DNA of 64,000 nucleotides, taken from positions 1-64,000 of the forward strand of contig NZ_NRGS01000020.1 of assembly GCF_002332425.1 (NCBI RefSeq), written 5' to 3'. This stretch comes from Brachybacterium alimentarium (GTDB lineage Bacteria; Actinomycetota; Actinomycetes; Actinomycetales; Dermabacteraceae). Position numbers and translations under genes: made by a program. Shown one piece after another: positions 2,238 to 42,948 of this stretch. Each line of letters opens with the position of its first letter. Position 1 is the first letter of the stretch. The notes under the pieces are model-generated. The model ran no database searches, had not been told where the DNA came from, and saw nothing but the letters and a program-made list of their open reading frames with translations.

Positions 2238-4988
<2,751 letters not shown>

Positions 4989-5051
4989 CTAGTCGAGTTC
5001 GATGGGTCGTGCGGGGCGCGGCAGGGCCGGCGCCGGGAGGGAAAACTGTCC

Positions 5052-5134
5052 GGTCAGGTCGTGCAGGTCCGTATTGGTCGATGCTGGTCTGCGCTGGTCT
5101 GTGCTGGTCGGTGCTGGTCGGTGCAGGTCTGTGC
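5052..5134. repeat. 10-bp tandem repeat between argR and argG
   Basis: About eight degenerate copies of a 10-base unit close to GTGCTGGTCK fill the argR-argG gap (minus strand GACCAGCAC). Copies at 5101-5110 and 5111-5120 are identical; outer copies diverge. There is no open reading frame or hairpin logic in it. The period is close to one helical turn, so each unit would face the same side of the DNA. Confidence 0.85.
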
Positions 5135-5138
5135 CGAG

Positions 5139-7947
<2,809 letters not shown>

Positions 7948-7955
<8 letters not shown>

Positions 7956-8895
7956 AGTCGTCCCTCCTCACCATCGTGCCCACACCCTTGGCGGTGAACA
8001 CCTCGAGCAGCACTGCGTGCTCGATCCTTCCGTCGATCATCGCGGCCGTGCGCACCCCGGCGTCGACCGCGTCCAGCAGCGACTCCGCCTTGGGGATCAT
8101 CCCGGCGGTGAGCGAGGGCAGCATGGCCCGCAGCTCGCTCGCGGAGACCTCGGGGATCAGGGAGTCGCGATCCGGCCAGTCACCGTAGAGCCCCTCGACG
8201 TCGGTGAGGACGACGAGCTTCTCGGCGTCCAGCCCGGCGGCGAGAGCAGCGGCGGCGAGATCGGCGTTGATGTTCAGCACGGCGCCGGTGGGGCGGCCGT
8301 TCTCGTCGATCTCCGGGGCGATCGACGAGACCACCGGGATGCGGCCGGCGTCCAGCAGATCCTGGATGGACTCGGGCCGCACCTGGGTGACGGCGCCGAC
8401 GTGCCCGAGGTCGAGCTCCTCGCCGTCGACCACCGTGCCCCGCCGACGGGCCGAGAACAACCGGGCGTCCTCACCGGACATCCCGATCGCGTAGGGGCCG
8501 TGCTCGTTGACCAGGCCCACGAGCTCACGGCCCACCTGGCCCACCAGCACCATGCGGACGATGTCCATCGTCTCGGCGTCGGTCACCCGCAGGCCACCGC
8601 GGAACTCGCTGTCCACGCCCACGCGCTGCAGCATCGCGTTGATCTGCGGGCCGCCGCCGTGGACGACGACCACGTGAATGCCGGCATGGCGCATGAAGAC
8701 CATGTCGGCGGCGAAGGCACGCCGCAGGTCGTCGTCGATCATCGCGTTGCCGCCGTACTTGACCACGACGATCTTCCCCATGAAGCGCTGCATCCAGGGC
8801 AGCGCCTCGATGAGGATCTCGGACTTCGCACGGGCGTCCGCCTGGGCGGTCGTGAGCTCGGCGAGCGGGTTCTTCCCGGTGGGAGAGCTGTTCAT
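7948..8895 (-). CDS. argB: Acetylglutamate kinase
   Basis: Phosphorylates N-acetylglutamate. The amino-acid-kinase fold motifs are present: VVKYGGNAM near 44-52, [11 protein letters not shown] near 99-109, and the [12 protein letters not shown] substrate segment. Length of 315 is slightly above the usual 295 owing to an N-terminal extension of about 25 residues, which in other species marks arginine-inhibited hexameric enzymes. Whether this enzyme is feedback inhibited is inference. The ATG overlaps the argJ stop as ATGA. Confidence 0.96.
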
Positions 8896-10061
8896 GAGGA
8901 GTAGGCGCTGTTCTCTTCGACGTAGTCGTGGGTGAGGTCGTTGGTCCAGATGTCGCCGGTCGCGGAGCCGGCGCCGAGGTCGACCTCGATGAGGGTCTCA
9001 CGCGGGGTCATGTCCACCTCGGAGCGGTCGCGGTGCGCACCGCCGGCGCGGCACACCTCGACGCCGTTGACGGTGACCGACAGGTGGTCGACGTCGAAGG
9101 GGGCGACGGCCTCGGGCACGCAGCCCGCGGCGGCGACGATGCGCCCCCAGTTCGGGTCGTTGCCGAAGATCGCGGCCTTGACCAGGTTGGAACGGGCGAT
9201 CTCGCGGGCCACGGCGAGCGCCGCCTGCTCGGTGGTCGCGGACCGGACGACGACGTGGACGTCGTGGCTCGCACCCTCGGCGTCGGCCACCAGCTGGCGG
9301 GCGAGATCCGCGCTGACGGCGCGCACGGCCTCTGCGAGCTCATCGGCCTCCACGGCGATGCCGCTCGCACCGGAGGCCAGCAGGATCACGGTGTCGTTGG
9401 TGGACATGCAGGCGTCGGAGTCGACCCGGTCGAAGGTCGTCGCGGTCGCGCCGCGCAGGGCAGCGTCGGCCGTGGCGGCGTCGACGTCCGCGTCCGTGGT
9501 GAGCACGACGAGCATCGTGGCGAGCTGTGGCGCGAGCATGCCCGCACCCTTCGCCATCCCGCCGACGACCACGCCGGAGGCGGTGGTGGCCTCGGCGGTC
9601 TTCGGCACCGAATCCGTGGTCATGATCGCGCGGGACGCGGCGGCATCGGCCTCGTCACCGGAGGAGAGCTGCTCGGTCGCGGCGGTGATCCCGGCCAGCA
9701 GCGGATCCATCGGCAGCCGCTCCCCGATCAGGCCGGTCGAGCAGACCAGCACGTCCTGGGCGGAGATGCCGAGGAGCCCGGAGAGATGCTCCGCCGTGCG
9801 GTGGGTGTCGGCGAAGCCGTCGGGCCCGGTGCAGGCGTTGGCGCCGCCGGAGTTCAGGACCACGGTGCGGGCGCGGCCGTCGGCCACGGCCTGGCGGGAC
9901 CAGACCACCGGCGCGGCCTGCACCCGGTTCGAGGTGAAGACGGCGGCGGCGGTGTCGCGCGGCCCGTCGTTGACGACGAGGGCGAGGTCCTCCGCGCCGC
10001 TGGACTTGATGCCGGCGACGAGGCCGACGGCCCGGAAGCCGCGAGGGCGGGTGATGGTCAT
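8892..10061 (-). CDS. argJ: Bifunctional ornithine acetyltransferase / N-acetylglutamate synthase
   Basis: Recycles the acetyl group between N-acetylornithine and glutamate. The family cleaves itself into two chains; the site is visible as Ala181-Thr182 in [11 protein letters not shown], with [12 protein letters not shown] before it. The start at 10061 is chosen because AGGAG lies 6 bases upstream and the family begins at [12 protein letters not shown]; an upstream in-frame ATG at 10136 has no such support. The 389 residues fit the family. A 148-base gap separates it from argC. Confidence 0.95.
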
Positions 10062-10209
10062 GTGGGGCTCCTGGGGGAACGGCGGGGGAAGCGTGAAGGC
10101 GAAGACGTGGGCGGGATCGGGGCGGAGCGCGGGCACGACGCGGACCGCGCGTGGGCACGAGGAGCGGCCGACGGGTCCCGACGGGACGGGCCGCGGCCGA
10201 TCCGGTGGC

Positions 10210-11337
10210 TCAGGGAGCGAGCGCGGTGCGCGACAGGCCGGTGCCCTCGGGCAGGCCGAGCGCGAGGTTCATCGACTGGATGGCCGCGCCAGCGGTGCCC
10301 TTGACCAGGTTGTCGATCGCGGCGATCACGGTGGCCTGGCCGCTGTGGCGGTCCACGGCCGCGCCCAGACGGATCACGTTCGCCCCGGCGACCTCGCCGG
10401 TCGTGGGGAAGACGCCCTCGGGCAGCACGGTGAGGAAGCGCTCCTCGGCGTAGTCCGCGCTGAGCGCCGCGAGCAGATCCGCGGTGGTGGTGCCGTCGGG
10501 GACCGGGGCGTTCACGACGGCGAGGATGCCGCGGCTCATCGGCACCAGGACCGGGGTGAAGGTGAGGCGCAGGCCCTCCGCGCCCGAGGCACGACGAAGG
10601 TTCTGCAGCACCTCGGGCACATGGCGGTGGCTGCCGCCGACGGCGTAGGGGGCAGCGCTTCCGGAGGCCTCCGCGAACAGCAGGTGCTGCTTGGCCGACC
10701 GGCCGGCCCCGGAGTAGCCGACCGGGAGCACGGCGCTCAGCCGGGAGGCGTCGACGAGACCGGCGCGCACCAGCGGAGCCAGGGCGAGGGAGACTGCCGT
10801 GGCGTTGCAGCCGGGCACCGCGATCTCCCGAGAGCCGACGATCTGGTCCCGCTGGCGGGTGCCGTCCGCCAGCGGGAGCTCGGGCATCCCGTAGGTCCAC
10901 GTGCCGGAGTGCTCGCTGCGGTAGTACTCGGCCCAGTCCTCGGCGCTCTCGAGCCGGTGGTCCGCTCCCAGGTCGAGCACGAGCACGTCCGGGTCCTCGG
11001 CGCGCAGGGCGGCCGCGATCTGCCCGGACTGCCCGTGCGGCAGCGCGAGGACCACGACGTCATGACCCGAGAGTGTCTCGACCGTGGTCTCCTGCAGCAC
11101 CGGGTCGTGGCCGAGGTCGATGTGCGGAGCGACCTCGCTCAGCCGCTTCCCCGCGCTCGAGTGCGCGGCGACGGTGGCGATCTCGACCCCCGGGTGCGCC
11201 GAGAGCAGGCGCAGGGTCTCCCCCCCGGCGTATCCGGACGCGCCGACCACGGCGACACGGGGCAGGCGCGCGGCGCGACCCGCCCGGGTGGCGGCGGCGC
11301 CGGCAGTGGAGACGGGGGCGTCCGATGAGGAAGTCAT
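10210..11337 (-). CDS. argC: N-acetyl-gamma-glutamyl-phosphate reductase
   Basis: NADPH-dependent reduction of N-acetylglutamyl phosphate, first gene of the arg operon. The nucleotide-binding loop is GASGYAGGE (32-40), the catalytic cysteine is C177 in AVPGCNATAV, and the histidine motif HRHVPEV follows. The ATG at 11337 is preferred over one at 11364: TATACT lies exactly six bases upstream, which would put transcription start at the A of this ATG. The other ATG falls upstream of the -10 and within the likely ArgR site. The first ~25 residues are low complexity. Confidence 0.94.
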   Translation of the reverse strand: MTSSSDAPVSTAGAAATRAGRAARLPRVAVVGASGYAGGETLRLLSAHPGVEIATVAAHSSAGKRLSEVAPHIDLGHDPVLQETTVETLSGHDVVVLALPHGQSGQIAAALRAEDPDVLVLDLGADHRLESAEDWAEYYRSEHSGTWTYGMPELPLADGTRQRDQIVGSREIAVPGCNATAVSLALAPLVRAGLVDASRLSAVLPVGYSGAGRSAKQHLLFAEASGSAAPYAVGGSHRHVPEVLQNLRRASGAEGLRLTFTPVLVPMSRGILAVVNAPVPDGTTTADLLAALSADYAEERFLTVLPEGVFPTTGEVAGANVIRLGAAVDRHSGQATVIAAIDNLVKGTAGAAIQSMNLALGLPEGTGLSRTALAP

Positions 11338-11372
11338 GCCGGAAGTATATACAGGACCATGCATGTTCAGCC
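11338..11372 (-). promoter_or_regulatory. argC promoter with candidate ArgR box, leaderless start
   Basis: TATACT (11349-11344) ends six bases before the argC ATG. Immediately upstream is an A/T-rich island, unusual in this sequence, with half-site-like TGCAT and TGTATA (about 11365-11348), resembling ARG boxes. The -35 region is poor. Operator assignment rests on position and resemblance, not on a full consensus match. Confidence 0.55.
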
Positions 11373-11770
11373 AGTTCTTACCGCGCCGGCCTCAGGGAAG
11401 TCCGTCACGTCGCGCCTGCCATCCGCACGGTCTGCGGGTACACCCGTCCACACCGACCCCCGACCCCACCAGCCGCCACGCCCCCTATGACGGGTTGTGC
11501 ACAGCGGTTCCGTCGACCACTCCCTCCTCGAAGGCGGCCTCCAGAACGCCCAGTCCGTACGCAGCACGCCCACGCGGCACGCCCCATCACGGCGGCGCGC
11601 CGAGCGCGGCAGCATTGCGGAGCCGCTGCACCCAAACGTTTTACCGCGGTTTCGTCACGAGTGTGTAACGGGGCGCCTGGCGAAGAAGTTAACCGCTAAA
11701 GTCACCAGAGACAACCGATCATCGACGATCGCTCGGAACCCGAGCACGTCACGTTCACAAGGTGGTGATC
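11373..11770 (+). promoter_or_regulatory. Intergenic region upstream of the oligosaccharide/peptide importer, with candidate operator
   Basis: This divergent gap has no credible gene. Near its right end are three short palindromes in sequence: AAACGTTT (11635-11642), ACCGCGGT (11643-11650) and the imperfect 16-mer AGTTAACCGCTAAAGT (11687-11702), which includes a possible -10, TAAAGT. The 16-mer resembles a site placed similarly before the Endo H gene. The importer start is preceded by AAGGTGG. Bases 11373-11630 show nothing I recognise. Confidence 0.5.
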
Positions 11771-12895
11771 ATGACCGAGCCAGCACCCTTGGACGCCCTG
11801 GCGAAAGCAGAGCCGACGGCCGCCCCCGCCGGCGAGCCCCCAGCAGGCTCCTCGCCAGAGCGCCCGCGGTCCGGTTCCCGCGCGAGTCGCCTGGCCGGCC
11901 TGGTCTACCTGCGACAACGTCTGACGATGTACTTGATCGTCGCCTTCGCGAGCATCCTGGTGAACTTCATCCTCCCGCGCTTCATGCCCGGCAATCCCGC
12001 CACGCAGATGATCCGCGACATCACCAACCGGACCGGAGCTCCACCCTCGGGCTACCAGATGCGCCTGATCAAGGCACGCTACGGGGACCCCGACCGCTCG
12101 ATCCTGCTGCAGTTCTGGGACTACATCACCCAGCTCGCCCAAGGAGATCTCGGCCAGTCAGCGCAGTACTTCCCGATCTCCGTCAACGAGCTGATCGGCC
12201 GGGCGCTGCCGTGGACGCTGTACCTGGCGATCGTCTCGACGGTGCTCGGCTGGATGGTCGGCACCTATCTCGGCGCCCGCCTCGGATGGAGGCCCGGCCG
12301 GCGACTCGACGCGATCCTCACCCCGGTCTCGATGTTCTTCAGCTCGATCCCCGCCTTCTGGCTCGGACTGCTCATCGTCTGGTACCTCGCCTACATGAAC
12401 GGCTGGTTCCCCAACCAGGGCGCCTACAACAACTCGCTCCCTCAGAACCTCCTCAGCCCGGACTTCCTCCTCTCCGTCCTGTATCACGGGGCCCTGCCGT
12501 TCTTCACACTCATCATCGTCGGCTTCGCTCGTTGGCTGTTCTCGATGCGCAACATGATGATCACGACGGTCAATGAGGACTACGTGCAGCTCGCACGAGC
12601 CAAGGGGCTGCGGGAGAACCGGATCCGCAATCGCTACGCCGCCCGCAACGCCCTGCTGCCCAACTTCACGGGACTCGCCCAGAGCATGGGTGGAGCCCTC
12701 ACCGCGGTGATCCTCGCCGAGACGGTCTTCGTCTACCCCGGCATCGGCTCGCTGCTCACGGGCGCTCAGGCAGCCCGCGATTACCCGGTCATGCAGGGCG
12801 TGATGCTGATGGTCATCTTCGCCTCCCTGCTGTTCAACTTCATCGCCGACTCCGTATACGTCCTGCTCGATCCCCGCACCCGGGAGGTGAAGTGA
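11771..12895 (+). CDS. Opp/Dpp-type ABC transporter permease, first subunit
   Basis: Membrane subunit of a family-5 (dipeptide/oligopeptide/nickel class) importer. An N-terminal cytoplasmic stretch of about 45 Ala/Pro/Glu-rich residues precedes the first membrane helix (MYLIVAFASILVNFILPRFM). The periplasmic-loop proline pair MPGNP is typical of DppB. The EAA-like coupling loop is near LRENRIRNRYAARNALLPN, before the last helices. ATG 11771 is chosen over the GTG codons at 11762 and 11765 because AAGGTGG precedes it. Context with Endo H and GH20 suggests glycan rather than peptide cargo (inference). Confidence 0.9.
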   Translation: MTEPAPLDALAKAEPTAAPAGEPPAGSSPERPRSGSRASRLAGLVYLRQRLTMYLIVAFASILVNFILPRFMPGNPATQMIRDITNRTGAPPSGYQMRLIKARYGDPDRSILLQFWDYITQLAQGDLGQSAQYFPISVNELIGRALPWTLYLAIVSTVLGWMVGTYLGARLGWRPGRRLDAILTPVSMFFSSIPAFWLGLLIVWYLAYMNGWFPNQGAYNNSLPQNLLSPDFLLSVLYHGALPFFTLIIVGFARWLFSMRNMMITTVNEDYVQLARAKGLRENRIRNRYAARNALLPNFTGLAQSMGGALTAVILAETVFVYPGIGSLLTGAQAARDYPVMQGVMLMVIFASLLFNFIADSVYVLLDPRTREVK

Positions 12896-12896
12896 G

Positions 12897-13826
12897 ATGC
12901 TCAAGCGCTTCCTCCTGATCGGGAAGGTCCAGATCGGCCTGGCAATCATCGGCATGTTCACGCTGGCTGCCGTCTTCGGACCGTGGTTCAGCCGCACAGT
13001 GCTGGAGATGACGCCCCAGCAGGTCGACTACATGAACCTGACCGGCAGCCCACCGGACGCGGAGCATTGGCTCGGCACCACGAGCCAAGGCCAGGACGTC
13101 CTGGCCTGGATGCTCCATGGCACGCGCACCTCGATGCTGGTGGGGTTCGCCTCGGCGATCATCGGGACCGTCCTCACGGTCGTGATCGGCGCATGGGCCG
13201 GCTTCTCCGGCGGTTTCGTGGATCGGTTCCTCAACGGCACCATCCTCGTGTTCGGCAACTTCCCGACCTTCGCGCTGCTGTTCATCGTCGCCGCCGCCTT
13301 CCAGAACGCCAACTGGCTGCTGGTCTCGATCGTCATCGGCGGTATCGAGTGGGCAGGCGGAGCACGTCAGATCCGCGCCCAGACGATGAGTCTGCGAGGG
13401 CGCGATTTCACCACCGCCCTGCGCACCGTCGGCGAGTCCCGCGCCAGGATCATCCTCGTCGAGGTGATGCCCCATCTGCTCGGGGTCATCTCCCCGATGT
13501 TCCTCGGCCTGATCGCCGCGGGCGTCAACCAGCAGGCGGCGCTGGCGTTCCTGGGGATCGGGAATCCGTCCGAGCCCTCGTGGGGCCTGATGATCAACTG
13601 GGCGATGACGCAGAACGCCCTCTTCCGAGGCCTGTGGTGGTGGTTCATCCCGCCCGGCCTCGCACTGTGCCTCATCGGCTTCGCCACCACGATGGTGAAC
13701 TTCGGGCTCGATGAGATCACCAACCCGACCCTGTCCAGCAAGCGCATGAAGCTGATGCGCATCTTCCTGCGGGAGAAGGCTCGATCCACGAGCTCGCACA
13801 GCCAGAAGGAGCTGACCGCGTCATGA
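12897..13826 (+). CDS. Opp/Dpp-type ABC transporter permease, second subunit
   Basis: DppC-like partner of the upstream permease, 309 residues. It shows the DppC arrangement: one N-terminal helix (about 8-30), an extracellular segment containing HWLGTTSQGQDVLAWMLHGT, then five further helices, with the coupling loop around LRTVGESRARIILVEVMPHL. The ATG begins one base after the stop of the first permease, with GGGAGGTGAAG as ribosome site, and the gene overlaps the next by 4 bases, so the five importer genes are one operon. Confidence 0.92.
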   Translation: MLKRFLLIGKVQIGLAIIGMFTLAAVFGPWFSRTVLEMTPQQVDYMNLTGSPPDAEHWLGTTSQGQDVLAWMLHGTRTSMLVGFASAIIGTVLTVVIGAWAGFSGGFVDRFLNGTILVFGNFPTFALLFIVAAAFQNANWLLVSIVIGGIEWAGGARQIRAQTMSLRGRDFTTALRTVGESRARIILVEVMPHLLGVISPMFLGLIAAGVNQQAALAFLGIGNPSEPSWGLMINWAMTQNALFRGLWWWFIPPGLALCLIGFATTMVNFGLDEITNPTLSSKRMKLMRIFLREKARSTSSHSQKELTAS

Positions 13827-14944
13827 CCCTCACCACCGTTCCGCAGCATCTGGAGACGGAAGCGGAGATCATCTCCCGCCTCGAGGACTCTCCCGTGCTC
13901 CTCGACGTCCGTGGGCTGTGCGTCGACTACGTGACCGAGGCGGGGAACATCCGCGCATGCGACGACGTCGATCTCACCCTCCGCCGAGGCGAGATCCTCG
14001 GTGTGGCGGGTGAGTCCGCGAGCGGGAAGTCCACCCTGCTCAACGCACTCGGCCGGCTGCAGCGGATGCCGGCTGCGACCAGCGCCGGCGAGATCAGATT
14101 CCATCCCACCGATGGCACCGAGCCCGTCGATCTCGTCGGCCTCACCGAGGACGAGCTGGCCGCCTACCGCTGGACGAAGATCTCTGTCGTCATGCAGTCC
14201 GCCATGGCCAGCCTCAATCCCGTGATCCGCCTCGGCGAACAGTTCACGGACGTCATCCGCACCCACAATCCGCGAATCCGGCAGGCGGAAGCGCGCGCGC
14301 AAGCCGCCGAGCTTCTCACCATGGTGGGGATCAGCGCCGACCGGCTGACCGCCTTTCCCTTCCAGCTCTCCGGAGGGATGCAGCAGCGGGCCCTGATCGC
14401 GCTCTCCCTCGCCTGCGATCCGGATCTGGTCCTGATGGACGAGCCCACCACCGCGGTCGACGTGGTCATGCAGAGACAGATCCTCGACCAGGTGCTCGCC
14501 GCGCAGGAGCGGCTGGGCTTCGCCGTCGTGTTCGTGACCCACGATCTCTCGCTGCTCCTGGAGATCTCCGATCGCATCGCCATCATGTACGGGGGCAAAG
14601 TCGTCGAGGTCGGCACCGCAGCACGTCTGCACAGCACCGCGAAGCATCCATACACTCGCGCGCTGCGCAATGCGTTCCCGCCCCTGTCCGAACCGGTGCG
14701 TCGTCTCTCCGGCATCCCCGGGTCCCCACCGGATCTCCTGGATCTGCCTCCTGGCTGCTCCTTCGCACCGAGATGTGCTGCCGCGATGCCCATCTGCCAC
14801 CAGCGGGTCCCCGAGCTCCGGGACATCGACCAGGGTCGCAGCGCCTGCTTCCTCACCAATGGTGAGCTCAGCGAACAGGAGCTGGCGGTTCAGCAGCACC
14901 CGCCCCTCAACGGCGGGCACGACGAGGAGGGCGAGGCCCTGTGA
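13823..14944 (+). CDS. Opp/Dpp-type ABC transporter ATPase, DppD-like
   Basis: Nucleotide-binding subunit. Walker A GESASGKST (63-71), signature LSGGMQQRALIA, Walker B LVLMDEPTT and the switch histidine in VFVTHDLSLL are all present. The C-terminal extension CSFAPRCAAAMPICHQRVP has the cysteine spacing seen in oligopeptide-transporter ATPases, where related proteins carry an Fe-S-type cluster. The first ~28 residues precede the ABC domain. It overlaps both neighbours by 4 bases. Confidence 0.93.
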   Translation: MTLTTVPQHLETEAEIISRLEDSPVLLDVRGLCVDYVTEAGNIRACDDVDLTLRRGEILGVAGESASGKSTLLNALGRLQRMPAATSAGEIRFHPTDGTEPVDLVGLTEDELAAYRWTKISVVMQSAMASLNPVIRLGEQFTDVIRTHNPRIRQAEARAQAAELLTMVGISADRLTAFPFQLSGGMQQRALIALSLACDPDLVLMDEPTTAVDVVMQRQILDQVLAAQERLGFAVVFVTHDLSLLLEISDRIAIMYGGKVVEVGTAARLHSTAKHPYTRALRNAFPPLSEPVRRLSGIPGSPPDLLDLPPGCSFAPRCAAAMPICHQRVPELRDIDQGRSACFLTNGELSEQELAVQQHPPLNGGHDEEGEAL

Positions 14945-16044
14945 ACACCTCCGACCTGCACGCGCACCCGTCCAGCGAGAAGGTGCCGCAGCCCGAGAAC
15001 CCCCGCGAGGCCCGCTCCTCGCCGAGCCGAGAGGCCGTTCCCGTCCTCGAGGCACGGGACGTCCACGTCCACTTCACCGGGACCGACAGCGCCGGCCGCC
15101 CCGTGACGATCCGCGCCCTGGACGGCGTCGACCTCACCCTGCACCGGGGACAGATCTCTGCTCTGGTCGGCGAGTCCGGATCCGGAAAGACCACGATCGC
15201 GCGGATCTTCGCACTGATCCACAAACCGACCTCCGGCGAGATCCTGCTCGACGGAAAGCCGATCCGGGTGCGTGGCGGGCGGGCGGAGCGCGCCTACTAC
15301 CGTCACGTCCAGCTGATCTACCAGGACCCCTTCGCGTCGTTGAACGGTCTGAAGAAGATCCGGTCCATCGTCTCCCGCGTCGTGAAGATCCACTTCCCCC
15401 GGCTGGGGCGGGCACGCATACTCGAACGCACGGAGCAGCTGCTCGAGAAGGCGAACATGACGCCGTCCGCTCGCTACATCGACCGGTACCCCACCGATCT
15501 CTCCGGGGGCCAGAGGCAGCGAGTCGCCATCGCCCGAGCGCTGGCCGTCGATCCCGCCGTCCTGCTCGCTGACGAACCCACGTCCATGCTGGATGCCTCC
15601 ATCCGCCTCGATGTCCTGAACCTGCTCGGTGACCTGCGCCGGTCCGAGAACGTCGCGGTCCTCTACATCACGCACGACATCGCGAGCGCGCGGTATCTCT
15701 CGGACCGGATCCACGTCATGTACGGCGGCAAGGTCGTCGAGGCCGGGCCCACCGAGAGCATCATCTCGGCTCCCGTCCACCCCTATACGCAGCTCCTCCT
15801 CGGCGCGGCTCCGGATCCTGCTCGATACAAGGGATCCGGCAAACCGACCCACGAGCGGATCCTCGATGCCCGACCCGTCGACAACAGCTCCGACATCACG
15901 GGATGTCGGTTCGCGGACAGATGTCCTGTGGCGATGCCGAAATGCACCACCGAGGACCTCCCCCTGTTCCGCAGCACCGAGAACGACCACACGGTCCAGT
16001 GCTGGCAGGCGGAGAGCACCTCGGAGTACGAGCGGCTGTCGTGA
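14941..16044 (+). CDS. Opp/Dpp-type ABC transporter ATPase, DppF-like
   Basis: Second ATPase of the heterodimer. Walker A GESGSGKTT (77-85), signature LSGGQRQRVAIARAL, Walker B VLLADEPTS and the switch histidine in YITHDIASA are intact; the cysteine tail appears as CRFADRCPVAMPKC. The GTG start at 14941 overlaps the DppD stop as GTGA. About 35 disordered-looking residues precede the domain. Following bases carry AAGGAG before the binding-protein gene. Confidence 0.92.
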   Translation: MNTSDLHAHPSSEKVPQPENPREARSSPSREAVPVLEARDVHVHFTGTDSAGRPVTIRALDGVDLTLHRGQISALVGESGSGKTTIARIFALIHKPTSGEILLDGKPIRVRGGRAERAYYRHVQLIYQDPFASLNGLKKIRSIVSRVVKIHFPRLGRARILERTEQLLEKANMTPSARYIDRYPTDLSGGQRQRVAIARALAVDPAVLLADEPTSMLDASIRLDVLNLLGDLRRSENVAVLYITHDIASARYLSDRIHVMYGGKVVEAGPTESIISAPVHPYTQLLLGAAPDPARYKGSGKPTHERILDARPVDNSSDITGCRFADRCPVAMPKCTTEDLPLFRSTENDHTVQCWQAESTSEYERLS

Positions 16045-16094
16045 CCACAGACCCCGGGTTCCCCCGGTTACTGCAACGAAGGAGTAGTAGTTCC

Positions 16095-17852
16095 ATGTCA
16101 CCACGATCGACCCCTTTCGCCGTGAACCGGCGTTCCCTCTTCGGCCTGGGTGCCACCGCACTCACCGCGACGACCCTGGCAGCCTGCGGCGGCTCCGGAA
16201 CCTCGAGTGGCGGCGACTCCGATGTCGCCGGTGGCTCCGGGCCCCGTTCCACCGAAGGGACCATCGACAATGACGGCATCCTGCGAGTGGGGGCCGTGGT
16301 CGGGACCTCGAACGTCTTCCCCGAGAACTTCAATGTCTTCGGCGGAGGCGACTCGGCGCCGGGGAACGCTCTGTTCTGGGAGACGCTGTTCCGCATCTCG
16401 TCGACCGACGGTTCCGCTCTGGTGCCGAACCTGGGCAAGAGCTTCGAGTACACCGAAGGGGGAACGGTATGCACCTACATCCTGCGTGACGACGTGACCT
16501 GGAACGATGGTGAGAAGTTCACGTCCAAGGACGTCGCTTTCACCTACGGTTTCGTGCTGGAGGACCCATCCACAGAGCCGGATGAGCAGGGGAACCTGCC
16601 GTTCCTCGCCAAGGCGATCGAGACGCCCGATGAGATGACCGTCGTCGTCACCTACAACGAGCCGCAGTACACCGAGGATCTTCCGCTCTCGCTGTACTTC
16701 CCGATCTTCCCCGAGCACATCTACAGAGATCTCGATCGGGAGAACTATCAGGACAAGGACCCGGTCGGGACCGGTCCGGGCGTGCTGAAGAATTTCGCCG
16801 GCCAGCAGATCGAGATCGCGATCCGGGACGACTACTGGGGAGAGATCAATCCCGACCTCGCCGAGGTGCACCTGGTCCCTGCGGGAACCGCAGGCAATAT
16901 CGAATCTCAGATCACGCAGGGAGACGTCGACTGGGCCCAGGGCGGAGCACCCGGTGTGGTCTCGAACTTCGTGACGATGGAGGAGCACAACGGGTACTTC
17001 TACTATCCGGACGGCTCGACCCGCGGAATCATCATGGCCACCCACAAGGGACCCACTCAGGATCCGGCTGTCCGCCGCGCCCTGCGGGCCGGCGCGGACA
17101 TGGGGATCGTCGCTGAAGCCGCCGGCATCGCATACACGGTCCCCTCGATCACCGGTCTGGACACCGGAATCTACGAGACGATGCTCAAGGACGAGTTCAA
17201 GGCCCCGATGACGCCCGATGTCGATGCCGCGAAGAAGGAGCTGGCCGACGCCGGCTGGACCGTCAACGACAACGGCAACCTCGAGAAGGATGGCGAGGAG
17301 TTCCCGCTGAAGCTCCACATCCAGAACGACAACCCTGCCGAGATGACGACGATGCCGATCATCGTGGATCAGTGGTTGAAGAACCTCGGTCTGGACATCG
17401 CCTTCACGCCGCTTCCTCCTGATGTGTTCGGGCCCGCCCAGGCGAAGGGCGATTACGAGCTCTCGCTGTGGACCACCAACGCCGCCGGGGGCGCATTCCA
17501 GGCCTTCACGATGTACAAGCGCTCGAAGATCTTCGAGGTCGGGGACGACACCGCCGATGGCAACTACGGACGATGGGAGATGCCGGACGAAGCGGAGGAG
17601 GCGATCGTGGCGATCACCACGACACCGCCGGACGATGTCGACGCGATCATCGGATACTGCCAGGTGCTGCAGCAGGCCGTCGCGGACGACGCACCGTACA
17701 TTCCGGTGCAGTCCAACGGCGCAGGCGGGATGTTCACGACGAAGAAGTGGTCGGGGCTGAAAGAAGCCACCGAGATCGACTACTTCCCCCGCGTGGACGG
17801 ATACAACAACATGATCCGCACCGTGTCGGACGCCGCGCCCACGGCACCCTGA
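16095..17852 (+). CDS. Solute-binding lipoprotein of the Opp/Dpp-type importer
   Basis: Extracellular receptor of family 5 (SBP_bac_5). The N-terminus has a twin-arginine-like signal (NRRSLFGLGA, 11-20) and lipobox TTLAAC with lipidated C31, followed by a Gly/Ser linker. The mature part has family features such as TYGFVLEDP and an internal FPLKLHIQNDN. At 585 residues it is a normal size. The ATG at 16095 follows AAGGAG by ten bases; an in-frame start at 15903 would bury the signal. The ligand is not evident from sequence; N-glycan or GlcNAc oligosaccharide is inferred from neighbours. Confidence 0.93.
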   Translation: MSPRSTPFAVNRRSLFGLGATALTATTLAACGGSGTSSGGDSDVAGGSGPRSTEGTIDNDGILRVGAVVGTSNVFPENFNVFGGGDSAPGNALFWETLFRISSTDGSALVPNLGKSFEYTEGGTVCTYILRDDVTWNDGEKFTSKDVAFTYGFVLEDPSTEPDEQGNLPFLAKAIETPDEMTVVVTYNEPQYTEDLPLSLYFPIFPEHIYRDLDRENYQDKDPVGTGPGVLKNFAGQQIEIAIRDDYWGEINPDLAEVHLVPAGTAGNIESQITQGDVDWAQGGAPGVVSNFVTMEEHNGYFYYPDGSTRGIIMATHKGPTQDPAVRRALRAGADMGIVAEAAGIAYTVPSITGLDTGIYETMLKDEFKAPMTPDVDAAKKELADAGWTVNDNGNLEKDGEEFPLKLHIQNDNPAEMTTMPIIVDQWLKNLGLDIAFTPLPPDVFGPAQAKGDYELSLWTTNAAGGAFQAFTMYKRSKIFEVGDDTADGNYGRWEMPDEAEEAIVAITTTPPDDVDAIIGYCQVLQQAVADDAPYIPVQSNGAGGMFTTKKWSGLKEATEIDYFPRVDGYNNMIRTVSDAAPTAP

Positions 17853-17875
17853 GCGACGCGAGTTCGCCTCCCGGC

Positions 17876-17911
17876 GATCGGCCCCGCCCTCCACGGGGTG
17901 CGGGGCCGATC
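17876..17911 (+). terminator. Terminator of the importer operon
   Basis: An 11-bp perfect inverted repeat (17876-17886 with 17901-17911) starts 24 bases after the binding-protein stop. Its loop can also fold as a small C/G stem. It sits between convergent genes and may also act on the minus strand. Confidence 0.75.
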
Positions 17912-17994
17912 TCGGCGCGACGATTCACGCCGGCGCGACCGGGCCGCGGTGTGCCGGCACGTCTCATCCCCGCCCCACCACCCTGCGCAGGTGG

Positions 17995-18076
17995 CGTGCC
18001 CCGGGCTGCTCAGCCGACGTGCGCCGGACTGTTCAGGTGGCGTGCGCCGGACTGTTCAGCCGACGTGCGCCGGACT
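17995..18076. repeat. 23-bp tandem repeat running into the 3' end of the Endo H gene
   Basis: About 3.5 copies of a 23-base unit beginning GTGCGCCGGACTG. The first copy is diverged, the next two differ mainly in the last five or six bases (GGTGGC versus CCGAC), and the last is truncated inside the coding sequence. The stop codon of the minus-strand gene lies in a repeat unit, so copy-number change could alter the end of the protein. Confidence 0.85.
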
Positions 18077-18967
18077 GCCGTAGAGCGGCTCGGTGAACGC
18101 TGAGACGAGCTCGGACTGGTCGCCGTCCTGCAGCTCGTAGGTCACGAAAGCGCCGTAGCCGCCCTCCGCCGTCCTGGTGGCGAGATCTCGGACGAGTTCC
18201 GGCGTGGGCTCCCCCTCGGGGCCCAGGTCCACGGCTGCGGCCCCATACCTCGACCGGGGCAGACCGGGCACCTCGAAGTCCTGGAACGTCCCGTAGTAGG
18301 GGTTCCACGCATAGTCGAGCATGTCCCCCACCCGATGGCCGTGATGCACCGTGTTCTCAGCGGCAGGGCCGATCACGTAGAAGGTGATCAGTGAGGCGGG
18401 CATGCGTGCCCGCATCGCCTGCACGAGGTGGACGAACGAGTGGGCGTTCGGCTGGCCCGTCCCGTTCTCTCCGTACTCCACCCACTCGTCGTCGAGATCG
18501 ACGCCGTCGAGACCGTAGCGTCGAACGGCTGCCGCCACCTGCTGGGCGAAGCGATCGGCGGCGTGCCGGTCCGGGAAATTCGCGAAACCCGCTCCCTGGT
18601 GGTTGCCGAGGATGGAGAGGGTGACCTTGATGCCCATCTCCTGGAGCGGACGCACCATCGTGTCGGCGTTGTCCAGCACGTGCTGGACGCTCTCGTTGAA
18701 GGACAGGTAGGCGTTCTCCCCGTCGTAGTTGATGTTCGCCGCGAAGATCACGGCGATGTCGAAGGCTGCAGTCCCGTCGTCGAGCGTGTACTCGCCCACG
18801 TTGAGCAGCGAATTCTCGTTGACCTCGATATAGGCGATGGAGGTCGTGCGTCCCGGGTCCTTGAAGCGAGCCGCCTGCGCTGTCTCGGCGAGAGCTCCCG
18901 TGCCGAAGCCTGCGAGAGCGAGGCCGCCCGCTCCCGCGAGCATCCTTCTGCGGGTGATGGTTGCCAT
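18056..18967 (-). CDS. Secreted Endo H-type endo-beta-N-acetylglucosaminidase (GH18)
   Basis: Cuts the chitobiose core of N-linked glycans, releasing the glycan and leaving one GlcNAc on the protein. The match to Streptomyces Endo H is clear: LDGVDLDDEWVEYG around 153-166 has the catalytic pair (D159, E161 by alignment from memory), followed by NGTGQPN, then DYAWNPYYGT and ending EPLYGS. Residues 1-32 form a twin-arginine signal (TRRRMLAGAGGLALAG) with a cleavage site near AETAQA. GGAGGAGA precedes the ATG. Length of 303 fits a single-domain enzyme. The gene is convergent with the importer operon. Confidence 0.93.
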   Translation of the reverse strand: MATITRRRMLAGAGGLALAGFGTGALAETAQAARFKDPGRTTSIAYIEVNENSLLNVGEYTLDDGTAAFDIAVIFAANINYDGENAYLSFNESVQHVLDNADTMVRPLQEMGIKVTLSILGNHQGAGFANFPDRHAADRFAQQVAAAVRRYGLDGVDLDDEWVEYGENGTGQPNAHSFVHLVQAMRARMPASLITFYVIGPAAENTVHHGHRVGDMLDYAWNPYYGTFQDFEVPGLPRSRYGAAAVDLGPEGEPTPELVRDLATRTAEGGYGAFVTYELQDGDQSELVSAFTEPLYGSPAHVG

Positions 18968-18995
18968 GGGGTCTCCTCCGGTTCGATGATCGGTC

Positions 18996-19059
18996 AGTGC
19001 CCGACGGGCAGGGCGTCTGCGCCCGCTGTGACCCTAACTACTTAACCGGATTAGTGCCA
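18996..19059 (-). promoter_or_regulatory. Endo H gene promoter with candidate operator
   Basis: The minus strand carries TAGGGT (19036-19031) with a weak -35 TGGCAC 17 bases upstream. Between and over these is the imperfect palindrome ACTTAACCGGATTAGT (19040-19055), 12 of 16 positions symmetric, which overlaps the GH20 stop codon. A related 16-mer lies at 11687-11702. Centre-to-start distances are about 80 and 76 bases. A shared regulator is inferred; no regulator gene for it is in the window. Confidence 0.5.
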
Positions 19060-20241
19060 GGTCTGGACCGGGTGCCGTTCCGCTCCCATCACTCGTGCGA
19101 ACGGCACCAGCCAGGTGTCGAGGAGCTCGAACATCTCAGCTTCCGCCAGGGCATCAGGGCTGTCGCACCACACGGACATGGATGCGCCGAGGACGGTGTC
19201 GGGAACTCCGGCGGGCACCTCCGGCACATCGTGATGGAGGTTCTGCGCGGCGAGACCCATGAAACGGCGAGGGGCGAACGCGGATTCGAGGAGCCCGAAT
19301 CGTCGTCGGCCGTGGGGCTCGGGGACCCCGTCCGCGGAGAGCACGAAATACAGCAGGTCCCCGTTCGAGTTCACCAGGCGATAGCCGGAGTCAAGGTAGT
19401 CCTGCGCCGACGGCGTCCACTCCCGCCAGCGGATCCACACGTCGAGCACCACGTCGGTCCGGATCGGCACCAGCGGCCCGTCTGCTGCCGGGACGACGTG
19501 GTCGTTCCAGAGCATCGGGACTCGGTCCTGTTCGAGCGCCCAGGCCGCGAGAACATTCATGAACAGGGCGAAGGAGTCCATCGCCGTGGCATCGGGGCCG
19601 ATCTCGGTGCGGGCATGCTCCACCAGGGCCGGGAAGCGCTCGGGGTCTCGAGCATCGTCGTCCTCCCAGGGCGCACCGAAGAACTCGTCTCCGCCGAGAT
19701 GGATCGCGTCTCCGGGGAACAGCGCGGAGGCCGCCTCGAGCAGTCCGAGTGCGAAGGTGAGCGCCTCGGGCTGCGAGATGTCCAGCCTGTCTTCGTGCAC
19801 GACGCCGTGGCGGTCCACGAGCCGCAGATGCTCACGCCCGACGAGGAGGGCTGCGGCATGGGAGGGCAGGTCGATCTCGGGCACCAGGGCGATGCCGGCC
19901 CTCTCCGCCGCCTCGACGATCCGGGCCGCATCGTCCGCGTCCCAGGCATCCTCCGCGGCGAGCTCCTCGAAGCCGGGCAGCCGCACCCCGACCCGGTGGG
20001 TCTCGGTGAGGTGCAGATGCAGGGCCGTGAACCCGAGTTCGCTGAGGCGATCGATGAGCCGCACGACGGCGCCGGCCGTGAAGGCCTTGCGTCCCACGTC
20101 GAGGCTGAGCCCGCGATAGCTCGCCGATCCGAGCCCGCTCGACGCCGTCGCCGTGGCGCTCGACACCGAACCTGCAGGACTCGACGCGGGCCGTCGATCC
20201 GTGAACGATCGACGACCCGTGCCAGGGCTCGCACCCCTCAC
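19051..20241 (-). CDS. GH20 beta-N-acetylhexosaminidase
   Basis: Exo-acting enzyme that removes terminal GlcNAc or GalNAc by substrate-assisted catalysis. The catalytic Asp-Glu pair is D185-E186 in HLGGDEFFG. The barrel start is GLSLDVGRKAF near 44, and a conserved tryptophan region VWIRWREW lies later. There is no signal peptide, so it probably acts on imported oligosaccharides. The usual N-terminal GH20b domain is missing (396 residues). GTG 20241 overlaps the pheT stop as GTGA; the first ~40 residues are low complexity, and GTG 20166 is another possible start. Confidence 0.88.
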   Translation of the reverse strand: MRGASPGTGRRSFTDRRPASSPAGSVSSATATASSGLGSASYRGLSLDVGRKAFTAGAVVRLIDRLSELGFTALHLHLTETHRVGVRLPGFEELAAEDAWDADDAARIVEAAERAGIALVPEIDLPSHAAALLVGREHLRLVDRHGVVHEDRLDISQPEALTFALGLLEAASALFPGDAIHLGGDEFFGAPWEDDDARDPERFPALVEHARTEIGPDATAMDSFALFMNVLAAWALEQDRVPMLWNDHVVPAADGPLVPIRTDVVLDVWIRWREWTPSAQDYLDSGYRLVNSNGDLLYFVLSADGVPEPHGRRRFGLLESAFAPRRFMGLAAQNLHHDVPEVPAGVPDTVLGASMSVWCDSPDALAEAEMFELLDTWLVPFARVMGAERHPVQTWH

Positions 20242-37653: not shown

Positions 37654-39520
37654 CGACCGCCCGGAGGTCGACACCGTGCCCCGCCGGAAACAGCGGATCC
37701 TCGGTGCCGCCGGGCACGTCCTCCTGCGAGGCGCGCACAGCATCCATCGACCGCGGCAGCTCGATCGGCAGGCGTCCGCGAGCCGGCACCTCCCCGGAGA
37801 TCGCGTCGGCCCACGCCGCCCCTGACACCCCGAAACTGCCCGTCAGCGCATCGCAGTGACCGACGACGTCGGTGAGCACCGCGGCCCGATCGAGGTCCAC
37901 GTCGAGGATCAGCGGGCACTCCTCCCGGATCCGCGCCAGCCGGTGCGCGAGACCCGGCGGGAACTCCAGGTCGCCTTGGTGGAACCAGGATTCCAGGAAG
38001 AGGTCGTCGCGGGGCTGGAACGGGGCGCCGATCCGCAGCAGTGCCACGTCGGCCTCCGCCGGGGCGAGGACCTGCTCCCCCAGCTGGGCCACGACCTCCT
38101 CGGGCAGGCCCTCTGAATAGATCCGGGTCCGGCCCTGAACGCCCAGCAGCGGCAGCACCTGCCCGTCGTCGTGCAGGACCACCACGCTCGCGGCCTGCGC
38201 CTCATGGCCGGCGCGCCTGTCATGGGCGCGACCCACGAGCGCCTCGGCGGCGGATTCGTCGACATAGGGGTCGTCGAACAGTCCGAGCTGGAACTTCACC
38301 CGCAGTAGACGTCGGGCCGAGTCGGTCACGCGCTCGGGGGCGACTGCCCCATCCCGCACGAGGTCCAGCAGCAGCTGCGTGCATTCCTCGCCCCCGAACT
38401 GATCCGCCCCGGCCTCGAGGATGCGGGCCATGCGCTCGGAGGCGCTGAGGCCCTCAACTCCCCAGGCTCGCGCCGGCAGCACCTGATCGCCGACGTGGTT
38501 GTCGCTGACCAGCTCCCAGTCGCTGACGATGACGCCGTCGAAGCCGAGCTCCTCGCGCAGCAGTCCGGTGAGGACCTGCCTGTTGAATCCGAAGCCGACG
38601 GAGTCGATCTGCTGCCCGTCGATCTCGAGGCCGACGGGACGCCCGTAGTACGGCATGATCGCGTCGGCCCCCGCCTCGATGGCGCGCCGGAAGGGCAGCA
38701 GGTGCTCCGCGAAGCGACTGCCGGGATAGACCTGGTCGCGCCCGTAGGGGAAGTGCGCATCCTCTCCGTCCTTCTGCGGGCCCGCGCCGGGGAAGTGCTT
38801 CACGGTGGACTGCACGGCAGGCCCGGCACAATGCCCGCCCCCACGAAGGCCGGCGAGCGCCGCGGTGACCAGTTCCGCCACGAGCGCCGGATCCTGGCTG
38901 AAGCATTCGCGCTGCCGGGCCCAGCGCGGCTCGGTCGCGAGATCCGCGACGGGGTGCAGCGCGGCGCGGATGCCGATGGCGGTGTATTCACGGCGCACCG
39001 TGTCCGCCCAGGTGCGCACGAGCTCGGGATCCGCGAGTGCGCCGAGGCCCAACGGCTCCGGCCACAGGGAGAAGAACGATGTCACCCAGGAGGCTCCGGC
39101 GTTCTGCGCGCCGCCATGGCGGGGGTCGGTGGAGAGGGTGATGGGGATGCCGTGCGGGGTGCGCTCGGCGAGCTCCTGGAGGCGGTTGTGCCAGCGGGCG
39201 GCGGCCCCGGCGCTCTCCAGCCCGTGCACGTTGAAATGGGACATGCACTTCTCAAGCACGACGGTCGAGGTGGGCGATTTCGAGATCGCCCCAGGGGTCT
39301 CCAGGAGCGTGCCGTCCGCTCCGGTCTCGATGACCGTGTGGAACATCAGCCCCACCTTCTCCTCGAGGGAGAGACGGGAGAGCAGATCCTCGGTGCGCTC
39401 CTCCGGCGTCAGCCGCGGGTCCTCGAAGGGGTCCATCACGCCGTTGCGGTTCAGGTCCCGGTAGCGGGTGCCTTCCGAGTCGGAGAGGAACCGGGGCAGG
39501 GCGCGGTCAGCCGTGGGCAC
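37616..39520 (-). CDS. GH3 beta-glucosidase
   Basis: Retaining glycosidase that removes glucose from beta-linked oligosaccharides. The N-terminal barrel begins near ERTEDLLSRLSLEEKVGLMF; KH in TVKHFPGAG and the nucleophile Asp in DGVIVSDWEL are intact; the alpha/beta sandwich continues to about 610. The 634 residues lack the FnIII domain of larger members. No signal peptide, so it is probably cytoplasmic. GTG 39520 is chosen for AGGAG seven bases upstream and overlaps the preceding gene by 14 bases. Its last ~12 codons overlap DUF3054 convergently. Confidence 0.9.
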   Translation of the reverse strand: MPTADRALPRFLSDSEGTRYRDLNRNGVMDPFEDPRLTPEERTEDLLSRLSLEEKVGLMFHTVIETGADGTLLETPGAISKSPTSTVVLEKCMSHFNVHGLESAGAAARWHNRLQELAERTPHGIPITLSTDPRHGGAQNAGASWVTSFFSLWPEPLGLGALADPELVRTWADTVRREYTAIGIRAALHPVADLATEPRWARQRECFSQDPALVAELVTAALAGLRGGGHCAGPAVQSTVKHFPGAGPQKDGEDAHFPYGRDQVYPGSRFAEHLLPFRRAIEAGADAIMPYYGRPVGLEIDGQQIDSVGFGFNRQVLTGLLREELGFDGVIVSDWELVSDNHVGDQVLPARAWGVEGLSASERMARILEAGADQFGGEECTQLLLDLVRDGAVAPERVTDSARRLLRVKFQLGLFDDPYVDESAAEALVGRAHDRRAGHEAQAASVVVLHDDGQVLPLLGVQGRTRIYSEGLPEEVVAQLGEQVLAPAEADVALLRIGAPFQPRDDLFLESWFHQGDLEFPPGLAHRLARIREECPLILDVDLDRAAVLTDVVGHCDALTGSFGVSGAAWADAISGEVPARGRLPIELPRSMDAVRASQEDVPGGTEDPLFPAGHGVDLRAVVSPARREHPRRG

Positions 39521-41084: not shown

Positions 41085-41172
41085 GATGCCTCCTCGAGGC
41101 GGTGGGTACGACGTCGGACCGGTTCTCGTGCGGGGAGGGCTGCGAGCGGCACGCAGCCCACGACCGGGCGGA

Positions 41173-41991
41173 TCATTTGATCCCGGTGGTCGCGATGCCC
41201 TGGATGAAGTGGCGTTGGAAGAACAGGAAGACGATCAGGATCGGCAGCACGATGAGCGTGGCACCGGCCAGGAGCAGTCCGTAGTCCGTCTGGTTCTGAC
41301 CGGTGGAGATCAGCGCGAGCGCCACCGGGAGCGTGTAGGTGGACTCGTCGGAGGAGACCACCAGCGGCCACAGGAAGTTGTTCCAGGAGCCGAGGAAGGT
41401 GAGTATCCCGAGGGTCGCGAAGGCAGGGCCCGCCAGCGGCAGATAGATGCGGAAGAAGATCGCGACCTCCCCGACCCCGTCGATCCGACCGGCTTCGAGC
41501 AGCTCTCGGGGCAGGCCCAGGAAGAACTGCCGCATGAGGAACACGCTGAAGGGCTGCACGAGGAAGGGCAGGATCAGGGCCGGGATCGTATTGGCGAGCC
41601 CCAGGTTCACCACCAGGACGTACTGCGGGATGAACGTGACCAGGCCCGGGATCATCAGGCACAGCAGCACCAGGATGAACAGCGCCCGCTTGAAGGGGAA
41701 CTGCAGGTGCGCGAGCGCGTAGCCGAACATCGAGCTGAAGAAGAGGTTCCCCAATGTCACGGCGATCGCGACGACGGCGGAGTTGCGGAAGTACTGGGCG
41801 AAGGGCCGGTCGAAGAGACGACGGAAGTTGTCCCAGGTGGGCTCCTCCGGGATCCAGGTGGGCGGCACCCGCAGCAGCTCCCCCTGGGTCTTGACGCTGC
41901 CGAGGATCATCCACACGAACGGGGTGATCACCAGGAGCAGGAAGACCGTCAGGACGATGTAGGTCAGCACCGGGCTGCGACGCTCGATCAT
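41173..41991 (-). CDS. Sugar ABC transporter permease, MalG/CUT1-type
   Basis: 272-residue membrane subunit of a CUT1 carbohydrate importer. Six helices, starting YIVLTVFLLLVITPFVWMILGS; EAA coupling loop around ELLEAGRIDGVGEVAIFFRIYLP. ATG 41991 shares a TGATG with the stop of the preceding permease, with AGGGAG five bases upstream; a GTG at 41994 is the alternative start. An 88-base gap separates it from the glucanase gene. Confidence 0.93.
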   Translation of the reverse strand: MIERRSPVLTYIVLTVFLLLVITPFVWMILGSVKTQGELLRVPPTWIPEEPTWDNFRRLFDRPFAQYFRNSAVVAIAVTLGNLFFSSMFGYALAHLQFPFKRALFILVLLCLMIPGLVTFIPQYVLVVNLGLANTIPALILPFLVQPFSVFLMRQFFLGLPRELLEAGRIDGVGEVAIFFRIYLPLAGPAFATLGILTFLGSWNNFLWPLVVSSDESTYTLPVALALISTGQNQTDYGLLLAGATLIVLPILIVFLFFQRHFIQGIATTGIK

Positions 41992-42947: not shown

Positions 42948-42948
42948 G

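What the first reader, a model, noticed from the sequence alone, without database searches (positions are those of the whole stretch)
11635..20241. Endo H-centred N-glycan utilisation module with a dedicated Opp-type importer
A secreted GH18 enzyme closely resembling Endo H, a GH20 hexosaminidase without signal, and a complete five-gene family-5 ABC importer lie together between argC and pheT. Family-5 importers usually carry peptides; some carry oligosaccharides. Together they suggest release of N-glycans outside, uptake and exo-cleavage inside. I know of no described system with exactly this set, but that is from memory.
Basis: partly seen in the sequence, partly recalled or inferred. Interest (0 to 1): 0.8.

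Follow-up and report, generated by a model that had tools for sequence, protein, structure and literature searches.

The report
Sugar-linked peptide-type importer beside Endo H
In Brachybacterium, a membrane importer of a class usually thought to carry peptides sits beside enzymes that cut sugar trees off glycoproteins, and it probably takes up the freed sugar trees, a job for which other bacteria are known to use a different importer class.

Summary
Between argC and pheT lie a complete family-5 (Opp-type) ABC importer, an Endo H (GH18, over its NCBIfam cut-off) with a twin-arginine signal, and a GH20 without one. The genome is a Brachybacterium.

Of 38 Brachybacterium genomes, 10 carry this importer's SBP. 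All 10 have an endo-beta-N-acetylglucosaminidase (ENGase) gene in the same interval, one of them broken by an IS. Three ENGase families occur there: Endo H (4), EndoS-type PF23916 (9), GH85 (1). Of the other 28 genomes, 5 have an ENGase. Outside the genus, 2 of 3 carriers found have an EndoS-type ENGase beside the importer, one of them in another family at another site. None of 16 loci of more distant SBPs has one. The SBP's nearest solved relatives bind chito- or manno-oligosaccharides, but their key residues are not conserved.

Limits: the genome also holds a GH38/GH5_18/CUT1 locus of the known N-glycan type. GH20 is optional. Three Brachybacterium keep Endo H without the importer, and Endo H beside this importer was seen only in Brachybacterium.

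Verdict: new variant of a known kind. ENGase-plus-importer systems are described, none that I saw with an Opp-type importer.

The parts
11762..12895 (+). Opp/Dpp-type permease 1 (OppB-like)
   Evidence: PF00528 145 bits; NCBIfam Opp2B/Opp4B 194 bits, below equivalog cut-offs
12897..13826 (+). Opp/Dpp-type permease 2 (OppC-like)
   Evidence: PF00528 56 bits; Opp4C 171 bits, below cut-off
13823..14944 (+). ATPase D with oligo_HPY C-terminal region; overlaps permease 2 by 4 nt
   Evidence: PF00005 and PF08352 over cut-off; Walker A GESASGKS and signature LSGGM
14941..16044 (+). ATPase F with oligo_HPY C-terminal region; overlaps ATPase D by 4 nt
   Evidence: PF00005 and PF08352 over cut-off; Walker A GESGSGKT and signature LSGGQ
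16095..17852 (+). Family-5 solute-binding lipoprotein with twin-arginine signal (start taken from the 585-aa cluster P0121)
   Evidence: SBP_bac_5 170 bits; nearest solved relatives are chito- and manno-oligosaccharide-binding proteins
18056..18967 (-). Endo H (GH18 endo-beta-N-acetylglucosaminidase), twin-arginine signal, catalytic motif GVDLDDE
   Evidence: NF045482 363.7 bits against cut-off 300; PDB 1edt/6ve1 324 bits; D157, D159, D160 and E161 invariant in 21 sequences
19051..20241 (-). GH20 beta-N-acetylhexosaminidase-like enzyme, no signal seen; its GTG start overlaps the pheT stop by 4 nt
   Evidence: PF00728 102.5 bits against 22.3; motif HLGGDEFF; junction

Best explanation
The locus is an N-glycan scavenging module. 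Endo H, exported through Tat, cuts the chitobiose core of high-mannose or hybrid N-glycans on glycoproteins outside the cell. The freed glycan, which ends in one GlcNAc, is caught by the family-5 lipoprotein SBP and imported by the Opp-type permease and ATPase pair. Inside, alpha-mannosidases (GH92, GH125, GH38) and a GH5_18-type beta-mannosidase encoded elsewhere take it down to mannose and GlcNAc; GH20 may remove GlcNAc from hybrid or complex arms. Across the genus the ENGase at this site is swapped among three families while the importer (in two diverged forms) stays, so the importer's ligand is most likely what all three release. Shown: genes, families, signals by eye, neighbourhood recurrence, SBP phylogeny. 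Inferred: ligand, direction, substrate class, cytosolic steps, role of GH20.
For: (a) Genus: 10 of 38 genomes carry the SBP clade; 9 of them have all five importer subunits (the window, eight relatives), the tenth (G029) is cut by a contig end. 10 of 10 have an ENGase gene in the interval: Endo H in 4, EndoS-type PF23916 in 9 (one broken around an IS21-type transposase), GH85 in 1. Of the other 28, 5 have any of the three (Fisher p 6e-6, not corrected for kinship). (c) 16 of 16 loci of more distant SBPs have no relative of the three ENGases. (d) The ENGase-linked SBPs plus G323 form one group, support 100/100. (e) The best 12 solved sequences by SBP profile are chito- or manno-oligosaccharide binders, one of them named only as an SBP; with mutants merged they are about five proteins. 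The best 14 Foldseek chains are of the same proteins. (f) The genome holds GH92, GH125, two GH38 and a GH5_18-like gene; GH125 and one GH38 show no signal by eye, the GH92 start is uncertain.
Against: N204, W363, D365 and W513, conserved in five family-5 sugar SBPs (PMC8449061, passages), fall on Ala, Asn, Ala and Asp here. G323 has the whole importer and no ENGase in the stretches read. G008, G023 and G021 keep Endo H with the importer lost or reduced to an 82-residue SBP remnant. Endo H beside this importer was seen only in Brachybacterium: the other 79 of the 80 best Endo H loci lack it. All Brachybacterium loci and the Devriesea one share one chromosomal site where both flanks were seen, so they are not independent. 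A GH38/GH5_18/CUT1 locus of the known type is in the same genome and may do the importing. GH92 and GH125 are common in the genus (33 and 29 of 38), so their presence discriminates little. AppA, a peptide binder, is rank 15 in Foldseek with a close E-value, and VIA-align separates sugar from other family-5 SBPs only weakly.
Confidence: 0.65

Rival explanations
1. Division of labour: the CUT1 importer beside GH38/GH5_18 (contig C18) takes up the ENGase product, and this Opp-type importer takes up a related but different ligand, such as complex-type or larger N-glycans, or glycan still on Asn or a short peptide.
For: C18 carries GH5_18-like, GH38 and a CUT1 SBP. A related CUT1 SBP recurs in 7 of 80 Endo H loci together with GH38 and GH5_18-like genes. 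In the five Brachybacterium with the diverged importer and an unbroken EndoS-type gene (G007, G036, G037, G002, G029) that ENGase has no visible signal, so a cytosolic ENGase would need ligand with the chitobiose core still intact.
Against: The EndoS-type ENGases of G009, G018, G028, G081 and G368 do have signals (by eye). No glycosylasparaginase was noticed at the locus, though none was searched for.
Confidence: 0.2
2. Ordinary peptide importer that shares a variable site (argC-pheT) with ENGase genes by synteny alone.
For: Family-5 importers with oligo_HPY ATPases are typically peptide carriers (recalled); the genus copies sit at one site; residues conserved in sugar-binding family-5 SBPs are replaced; importer without ENGase in G323.
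Against: Independent ENGase link at another site in another family (G368); three ENGase families against one importer; nearest solved relatives are sugar binders, with the peptide binder AppA lower (225 bits against 340-364).
Confidence: 0.12
3. Importer of chitobiose or chito-oligosaccharides, with GH20 as the cytosolic partner; Endo H is unrelated.
For: Vibrio chito-oligosaccharide SBPs are the top profile match; 7 of 10 SBP loci in the genus have GH20.
Against: Residues that hold (GlcNAc)2 are replaced; GH20 is absent from G018, G028 and G029 while an ENGase is present in all ten; outgroup carriers G081 and G368 have an ENGase but no GH20 relative in the stretch read.
Confidence: 0.07

Closest known systems
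Streptococcus pneumoniae EndoD (GH85) + ABC-NG (NgtS-NgtP1-NgtP2) + GH92/GH125/GH38 (PMC5215778, passages read)
   Same: ENGase, ABC importer whose SBP binds the released Man5GlcNAc, mannosidases of the same families
   Different: There the ENGase and importer genes are not adjacent (SP_0498 and SP_0090-0092) and only permeases and SBP are listed (that NgtS is a family-1 SBP is recalled); here a family-5 SBP with its own two ATPases, next to the ENGase, with Endo H or EndoS-type usually in place of GH85
Cutibacterium acnes strain 266 N-glycan locus (GH38, GH5_18, GH20, GH18 with sugar ABC genes; PMC6160142, passages read)
   Same: GH18 and GH20 with an importer in one actinobacterial locus; strain-variable GH18/GH20
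   Different: Its GH18 is nearest EndoT and without signal, and GH38/GH5_18 lie in the locus; importer annotated as sugar type. Here Endo H has a signal and GH38/GH5_18 lie elsewhere
Dermabacter hominis Endo H locus (L003; same family as Brachybacterium, recalled); Curtobacterium (4 loci), Myceligenerans and one Streptomyces similar
   Same: Endo H of the same equivalog family beside importer genes
   Different: Importer is family 1 (SBP_bac_1) and the locus holds GH38, GH125, LacI and GH5_18-like
Vibrio chito-oligosaccharide SBP (VhCBP/VcCBP) and Thermotoga mannoside SBPs TM1223/TM1226
   Same: Family-5 SBP fold, nearest solved relatives of this SBP
   Different: About 20% identity; conserved ligand-holding residues replaced

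Membership tests
Endo H (NF045482) | Score over the curated equivalog cut-off | tested here: met
   363.7 against 300 bits
Endo H (NF045482) | GH18 D-x-D-x-E catalytic motif | tested here: met
   D157, D159, E161 invariant in A1, 21 sequences; that these are the catalytic positions is recalled
Endo H (NF045482) | Cleaves chitobiose core of high-mannose/hybrid N-glycans | not testable with these tools
   needs an assay
GH20 | Catalytic domain over cut-off and Asp-Glu pair | tested here: met
   102.5 against 22.3 bits; GGDE at residues 183-186; the pair's role is recalled
Opp/Dpp-type (family-5) ABC importer | Two PF00528 permeases, two ATPases with oligo_HPY, SBP_bac_5 | tested here: met
Cluster C oligosaccharide SBPs (VhCBP type) | Closer to sugar-binding than to peptide- or nickel-binding family-5 SBPs | tested here: met
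   by sequence profile and Foldseek order; weak by VIA-align
Cluster C oligosaccharide SBPs (VhCBP type) | Asn204, Trp363, Asp365, Trp513 (conserved in five SBPs, PMC8449061) | tested here: not met
   aligned to Ala, Asn, Ala and Asp, read by hand from the profile alignment; about 20% identity, not checked on coordinates
NgtS-type N-glycan importer (pneumococcus) | Family-1 SBP (SBP_bac_1) | tested here: not met
   SBP_bac_5 only; that NgtS is family 1 is recalled
Actinobacterial GH38/GH5_18/CUT1 N-glycan locus | GH38 and GH5_18 in the locus | tested here: not met
   absent here (GH38 hits of the genome are on C31 and C18; no GH5_18-like hit in the window); the set is at C18 (L169)

The most novel reading that the evidence does not exclude
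A clade of Opp-type, nominally 'oligopeptide' importers is a second, separately evolved class of N-glycan importer in Actinomycetes, serving whichever ENGase the genome has; in the branch with signal-less ENGase it takes up glycans with the chitobiose core and perhaps Asn or a short peptide still attached, which would explain why a peptide-class importer was recruited.
Probability: 0.2. Interest if true: 0.68.

Novelty: new variant of a known kind. Interest (0 to 1): 0.52.

Why it matters
Family-5 importers are annotated by default as peptide or nickel transporters. A clade tied to three ENGase families gives a concrete, testable ligand for one group of them, and suggests that bacteria have equipped N-glycan foraging with two different importer classes. 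It also marks argC-pheT in Brachybacterium and Devriesea as a site where ENGases are swapped around an importer, so the SBP clades may be read as probes of what each ENGase releases.

Tried and rejected
Endo H as the anchor of the module: rejected, since 79 of the 80 best Endo H loci (of 409 that passed) do not hold this SBP by tblastn at 1e-8. The one that does, L002 (Brachybacterium sp. FME24), has the contig length of G028's C16.

Peptide transport by default: lowered, not excluded (see rivals). Chitin use: lowered because GH20 is not constant and the (GlcNAc)2-holding residues differ.

Phylum sample: 396 genomes at E <= 1e-90 gave the window genome only. In some searches three candidates were scored per genome, so extra copies could be missed. 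One search lists SBPs of 43-46% identity from Occultella, a Microbacteriaceae MAG, a Nanopelagicales MAG and Brachybacterium sp. UMB0905; their neighbourhoods were not seen under those names.

Literature: searches listed no paper that I recognised, by title and start of abstract, as on a family-5 importer for N-glycans or on N-glycan use by Brachybacterium. These are open-licence PMC papers only. Bifidobacterium longum N-glycan work (PMC10367113) is not held, so its importer could not be compared.

ORF calls in relatives are my own greedy calls on codon-position G+C; starts are approximate, and some ATPase genes were missed there but found by tblastn. The Fisher values (12 of 13 against 0 of 16, p 2.5e-7) treat related genomes as independent and are illustrative only. 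The SBP tree has 27 rows, is rooted at the midpoint for drawing, and the tool warned of long branches, among them G368, G323 and some outgroups; G029 (cut by a contig end) and the SBP of L242 were left out.
Full report
WHAT IS THERE. The window is contig C20 of a 3.98-Mb genome. The closest named relatives of its GH18 and SBP are Brachybacterium. Between argC and pheT lie, on +, two permeases, two ATPases and an SBP, with 4-nt overlaps between permease 2 and ATPase D and between ATPases D and F; on -, convergent to them, GH18 and GH20. One search puts the GH18 over the Endo H equivalog cut-off. Signals were read by eye: twin-arginine on GH18, twin-arginine plus lipobox on the SBP, none on GH20. 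The GH20 start overlaps the pheT stop by 4 nt here, and by ORF coordinates also in G036, G037, G002 and G023; in G009 a gene with a sub-threshold DUF4870 match lies between, and in G008 one that looks alike.

JOINT NEIGHBOURHOOD TEST IN THE GENUS. All three proteins were searched in 38 Brachybacterium genomes. The SBP has close relatives (79-82%) in G009, G018, G028 and diverged ones (45-47%) in G002, G007, G016, G036, G037, G029; with the window that is 10 of 38. All five importer subunits are found in 9 of the 10 (the window, eight relatives); G029's contig ends inside the SBP. G008 keeps only an 82-residue SBP remnant. Reading stretches of up to 20 kb showed further genes in the same interval. 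Pfam and NCBIfam made them EndoS-type ENGase (PF23916; 291-320 bits where unbroken) and, in G018, GH85. Counts by tblastn and family search: Endo H in G000, G007, G009, G028; EndoS-type in G007, G009, G018, G028, G002, G036, G037, G029 and, as two separate pieces around an IS21-type transposase, G016; GH85 in G018. So 10 of 10 SBP loci hold an ENGase gene, 9 of them at least one unbroken. Of the 28 genomes without the importer, 5 have one: Endo H at the same site in G008, G021, G023; a broken EndoS-type remnant at the same site in G011; GH85 elsewhere in G014, beside GH38, GH5_18-like and CUT1 SBP relatives. G018's Endo H relative (57%) is on another contig. GH20 (72-78%) is in 7 of the 10 (one with an in-frame stop, G016, and one whose frame shifts near its end, G002), absent from G018, G028 and G029; it is also in G008 and G023.

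TEST OUTSIDE THE GENUS. An SBP profile was run on 396 genomes sampled from the order and 396 from the phylum (no other hit at 1e-90). Three genomes outside the genus have close SBPs, all with five subunits. G368, another family and another site, has subunits at 36-59% and an EndoS-type ENGase with a signal beside permease 1. G323, same family and another site, has subunits at 41-65% and no ENGase relative in the three stretches read. For contrast, 16 loci of more distant SBPs (the other 15 places listed and L166) have none: neighbours are GH35, GH42, GH95, GH16, an FAD oxidoreductase or, by eye, cell-wall recycling genes. The ENGase-linked SBPs and G323 form one group, 100/100. In the EndoS-type tree the genes at the diverged-importer loci form one group (97/100), as their SBPs do; the others are unresolved. 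This fits joint descent without proving it.

LIGAND. The SBP profile's best 12 solved sequences are Vibrio chito-oligosaccharide and Thermotoga mannoside binders (one, 8i5j, is named only as an SBP), about five proteins once mutants are merged. The first entry named a peptide binder outside these is 13th (9pl3) and 15th (AppA; two cellobiose-binder entries come before it). A model (mean pLDDT 88) gives sugar SBPs as the first 14 Foldseek chains, then AppA with a close E-value; VIA-align is less decisive. Against this, the residues that PMC8449061 (passages read) reports as conserved in five sugar SBPs, N204, W363, D365 and W513, the last three with drastic loss of (GlcNAc)2 binding when mutated, align to Ala, Asn, Ala and Asp. 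I read this as a sugar SBP of another specificity, with modest confidence.

REST OF THE PATHWAY. The genome also has an EndoS-type ENGase on C9 and a GH85 on C33, both with twin-arginine-like N-termini, two GH38, a second GH20, GH125 and GH92. The C18 GH38 sits with a GH5_18-like gene (52.5% to a Dermabacter one whose solved relatives include an exo-beta-1,4-mannosidase) and a CUT1-type SBP. GH38, GH5_18-like and a related CUT1 SBP accompany Endo H in 7 of 80 loci, including Dermabacter hominis. So actinobacterial Endo H is found with two importer classes: CUT1 there, Opp-type here. High-mannose glycan freed by Endo H needs mannosidases; GH20 has no obvious substrate on it (pathway knowledge), so its role is left open.

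KNOWN OR NEW. S. pneumoniae EndoD with NgtS (PMC5215778, passages) and the C. acnes locus (PMC6160142, passages) are the described kind; in a review of bacterial N-glycan enzymes (PMC10154615, passages) the word transporter does not occur. What differs here is the importer class, its exchangeable ENGases and its site. My searches listed no report that I recognised as a family-5 importer for N-glycans, within open-licence papers.

VERDICT.

Noticed in passing
L169 (G000:C18:63000-82500), about 4089-11952: Same genome carries a GH5_18-like gene, a GH38 and a CUT1-type SBP together: a second candidate N-glycan importer locus.
   Followed up: partly
L222 951-1892 (G000:C9) and L221 8572-10731 (G000:C33): Two more ENGases with twin-arginine-like signals in the same genome, EndoS-type and GH85, so it has three ENGase families.
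   Followed up: partly
window 20238-20241: GH20 start codon overlaps the pheT stop by 4 nt; the same layout recurs in four relatives, so a glycosidase appears to be coupled to the pheT gene.
   Followed up: partly
L155 10658-13957 (G016): EndoS-type ENGase is in two pieces either side of an IS21-type transposase; in G008 the importer is reduced to an SBP remnant.
   Followed up: partly
L166, L167, L239, L242: Paralogous Opp-type importers in Brachybacterium sit beside GH35 (L166 by eye) or GH42 genes, which suggests that this wider family-5 group may carry oligosaccharides generally.
   Followed up: no
L240, L243, L245: Other related Opp-type importers sit, by eye, with cell-wall recycling genes (NagZ-like, AnmK-like, RpiR-like).
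   Followed up: no
L005 11105-13980: In Streptomyces sp. NRRL B-1347 a different Opp-like transporter (29-40% to this one) follows Endo H within about 0.5 kb.
   Followed up: no
window 39507-45329: Another sugar-type cluster in the window: putative glucoamylase-domain protein (PF10091), permease-like ORFs and a LacI-like regulator (the latter two by eye).
   Followed up: no
argC-pheT site across Brachybacterium (L154-L161, L163-L165, L227): Two importers whose SBPs are only about 45% alike occupy the same site in one genus, as if one had displaced the other in place.
   Followed up: partly
L226 (G014:C116): A GH85 ENGase lies near GH38, GH5_18-like and CUT1 SBP relatives: the known-type N-glycan set in a Brachybacterium without the Opp-type importer.
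   Followed up: no
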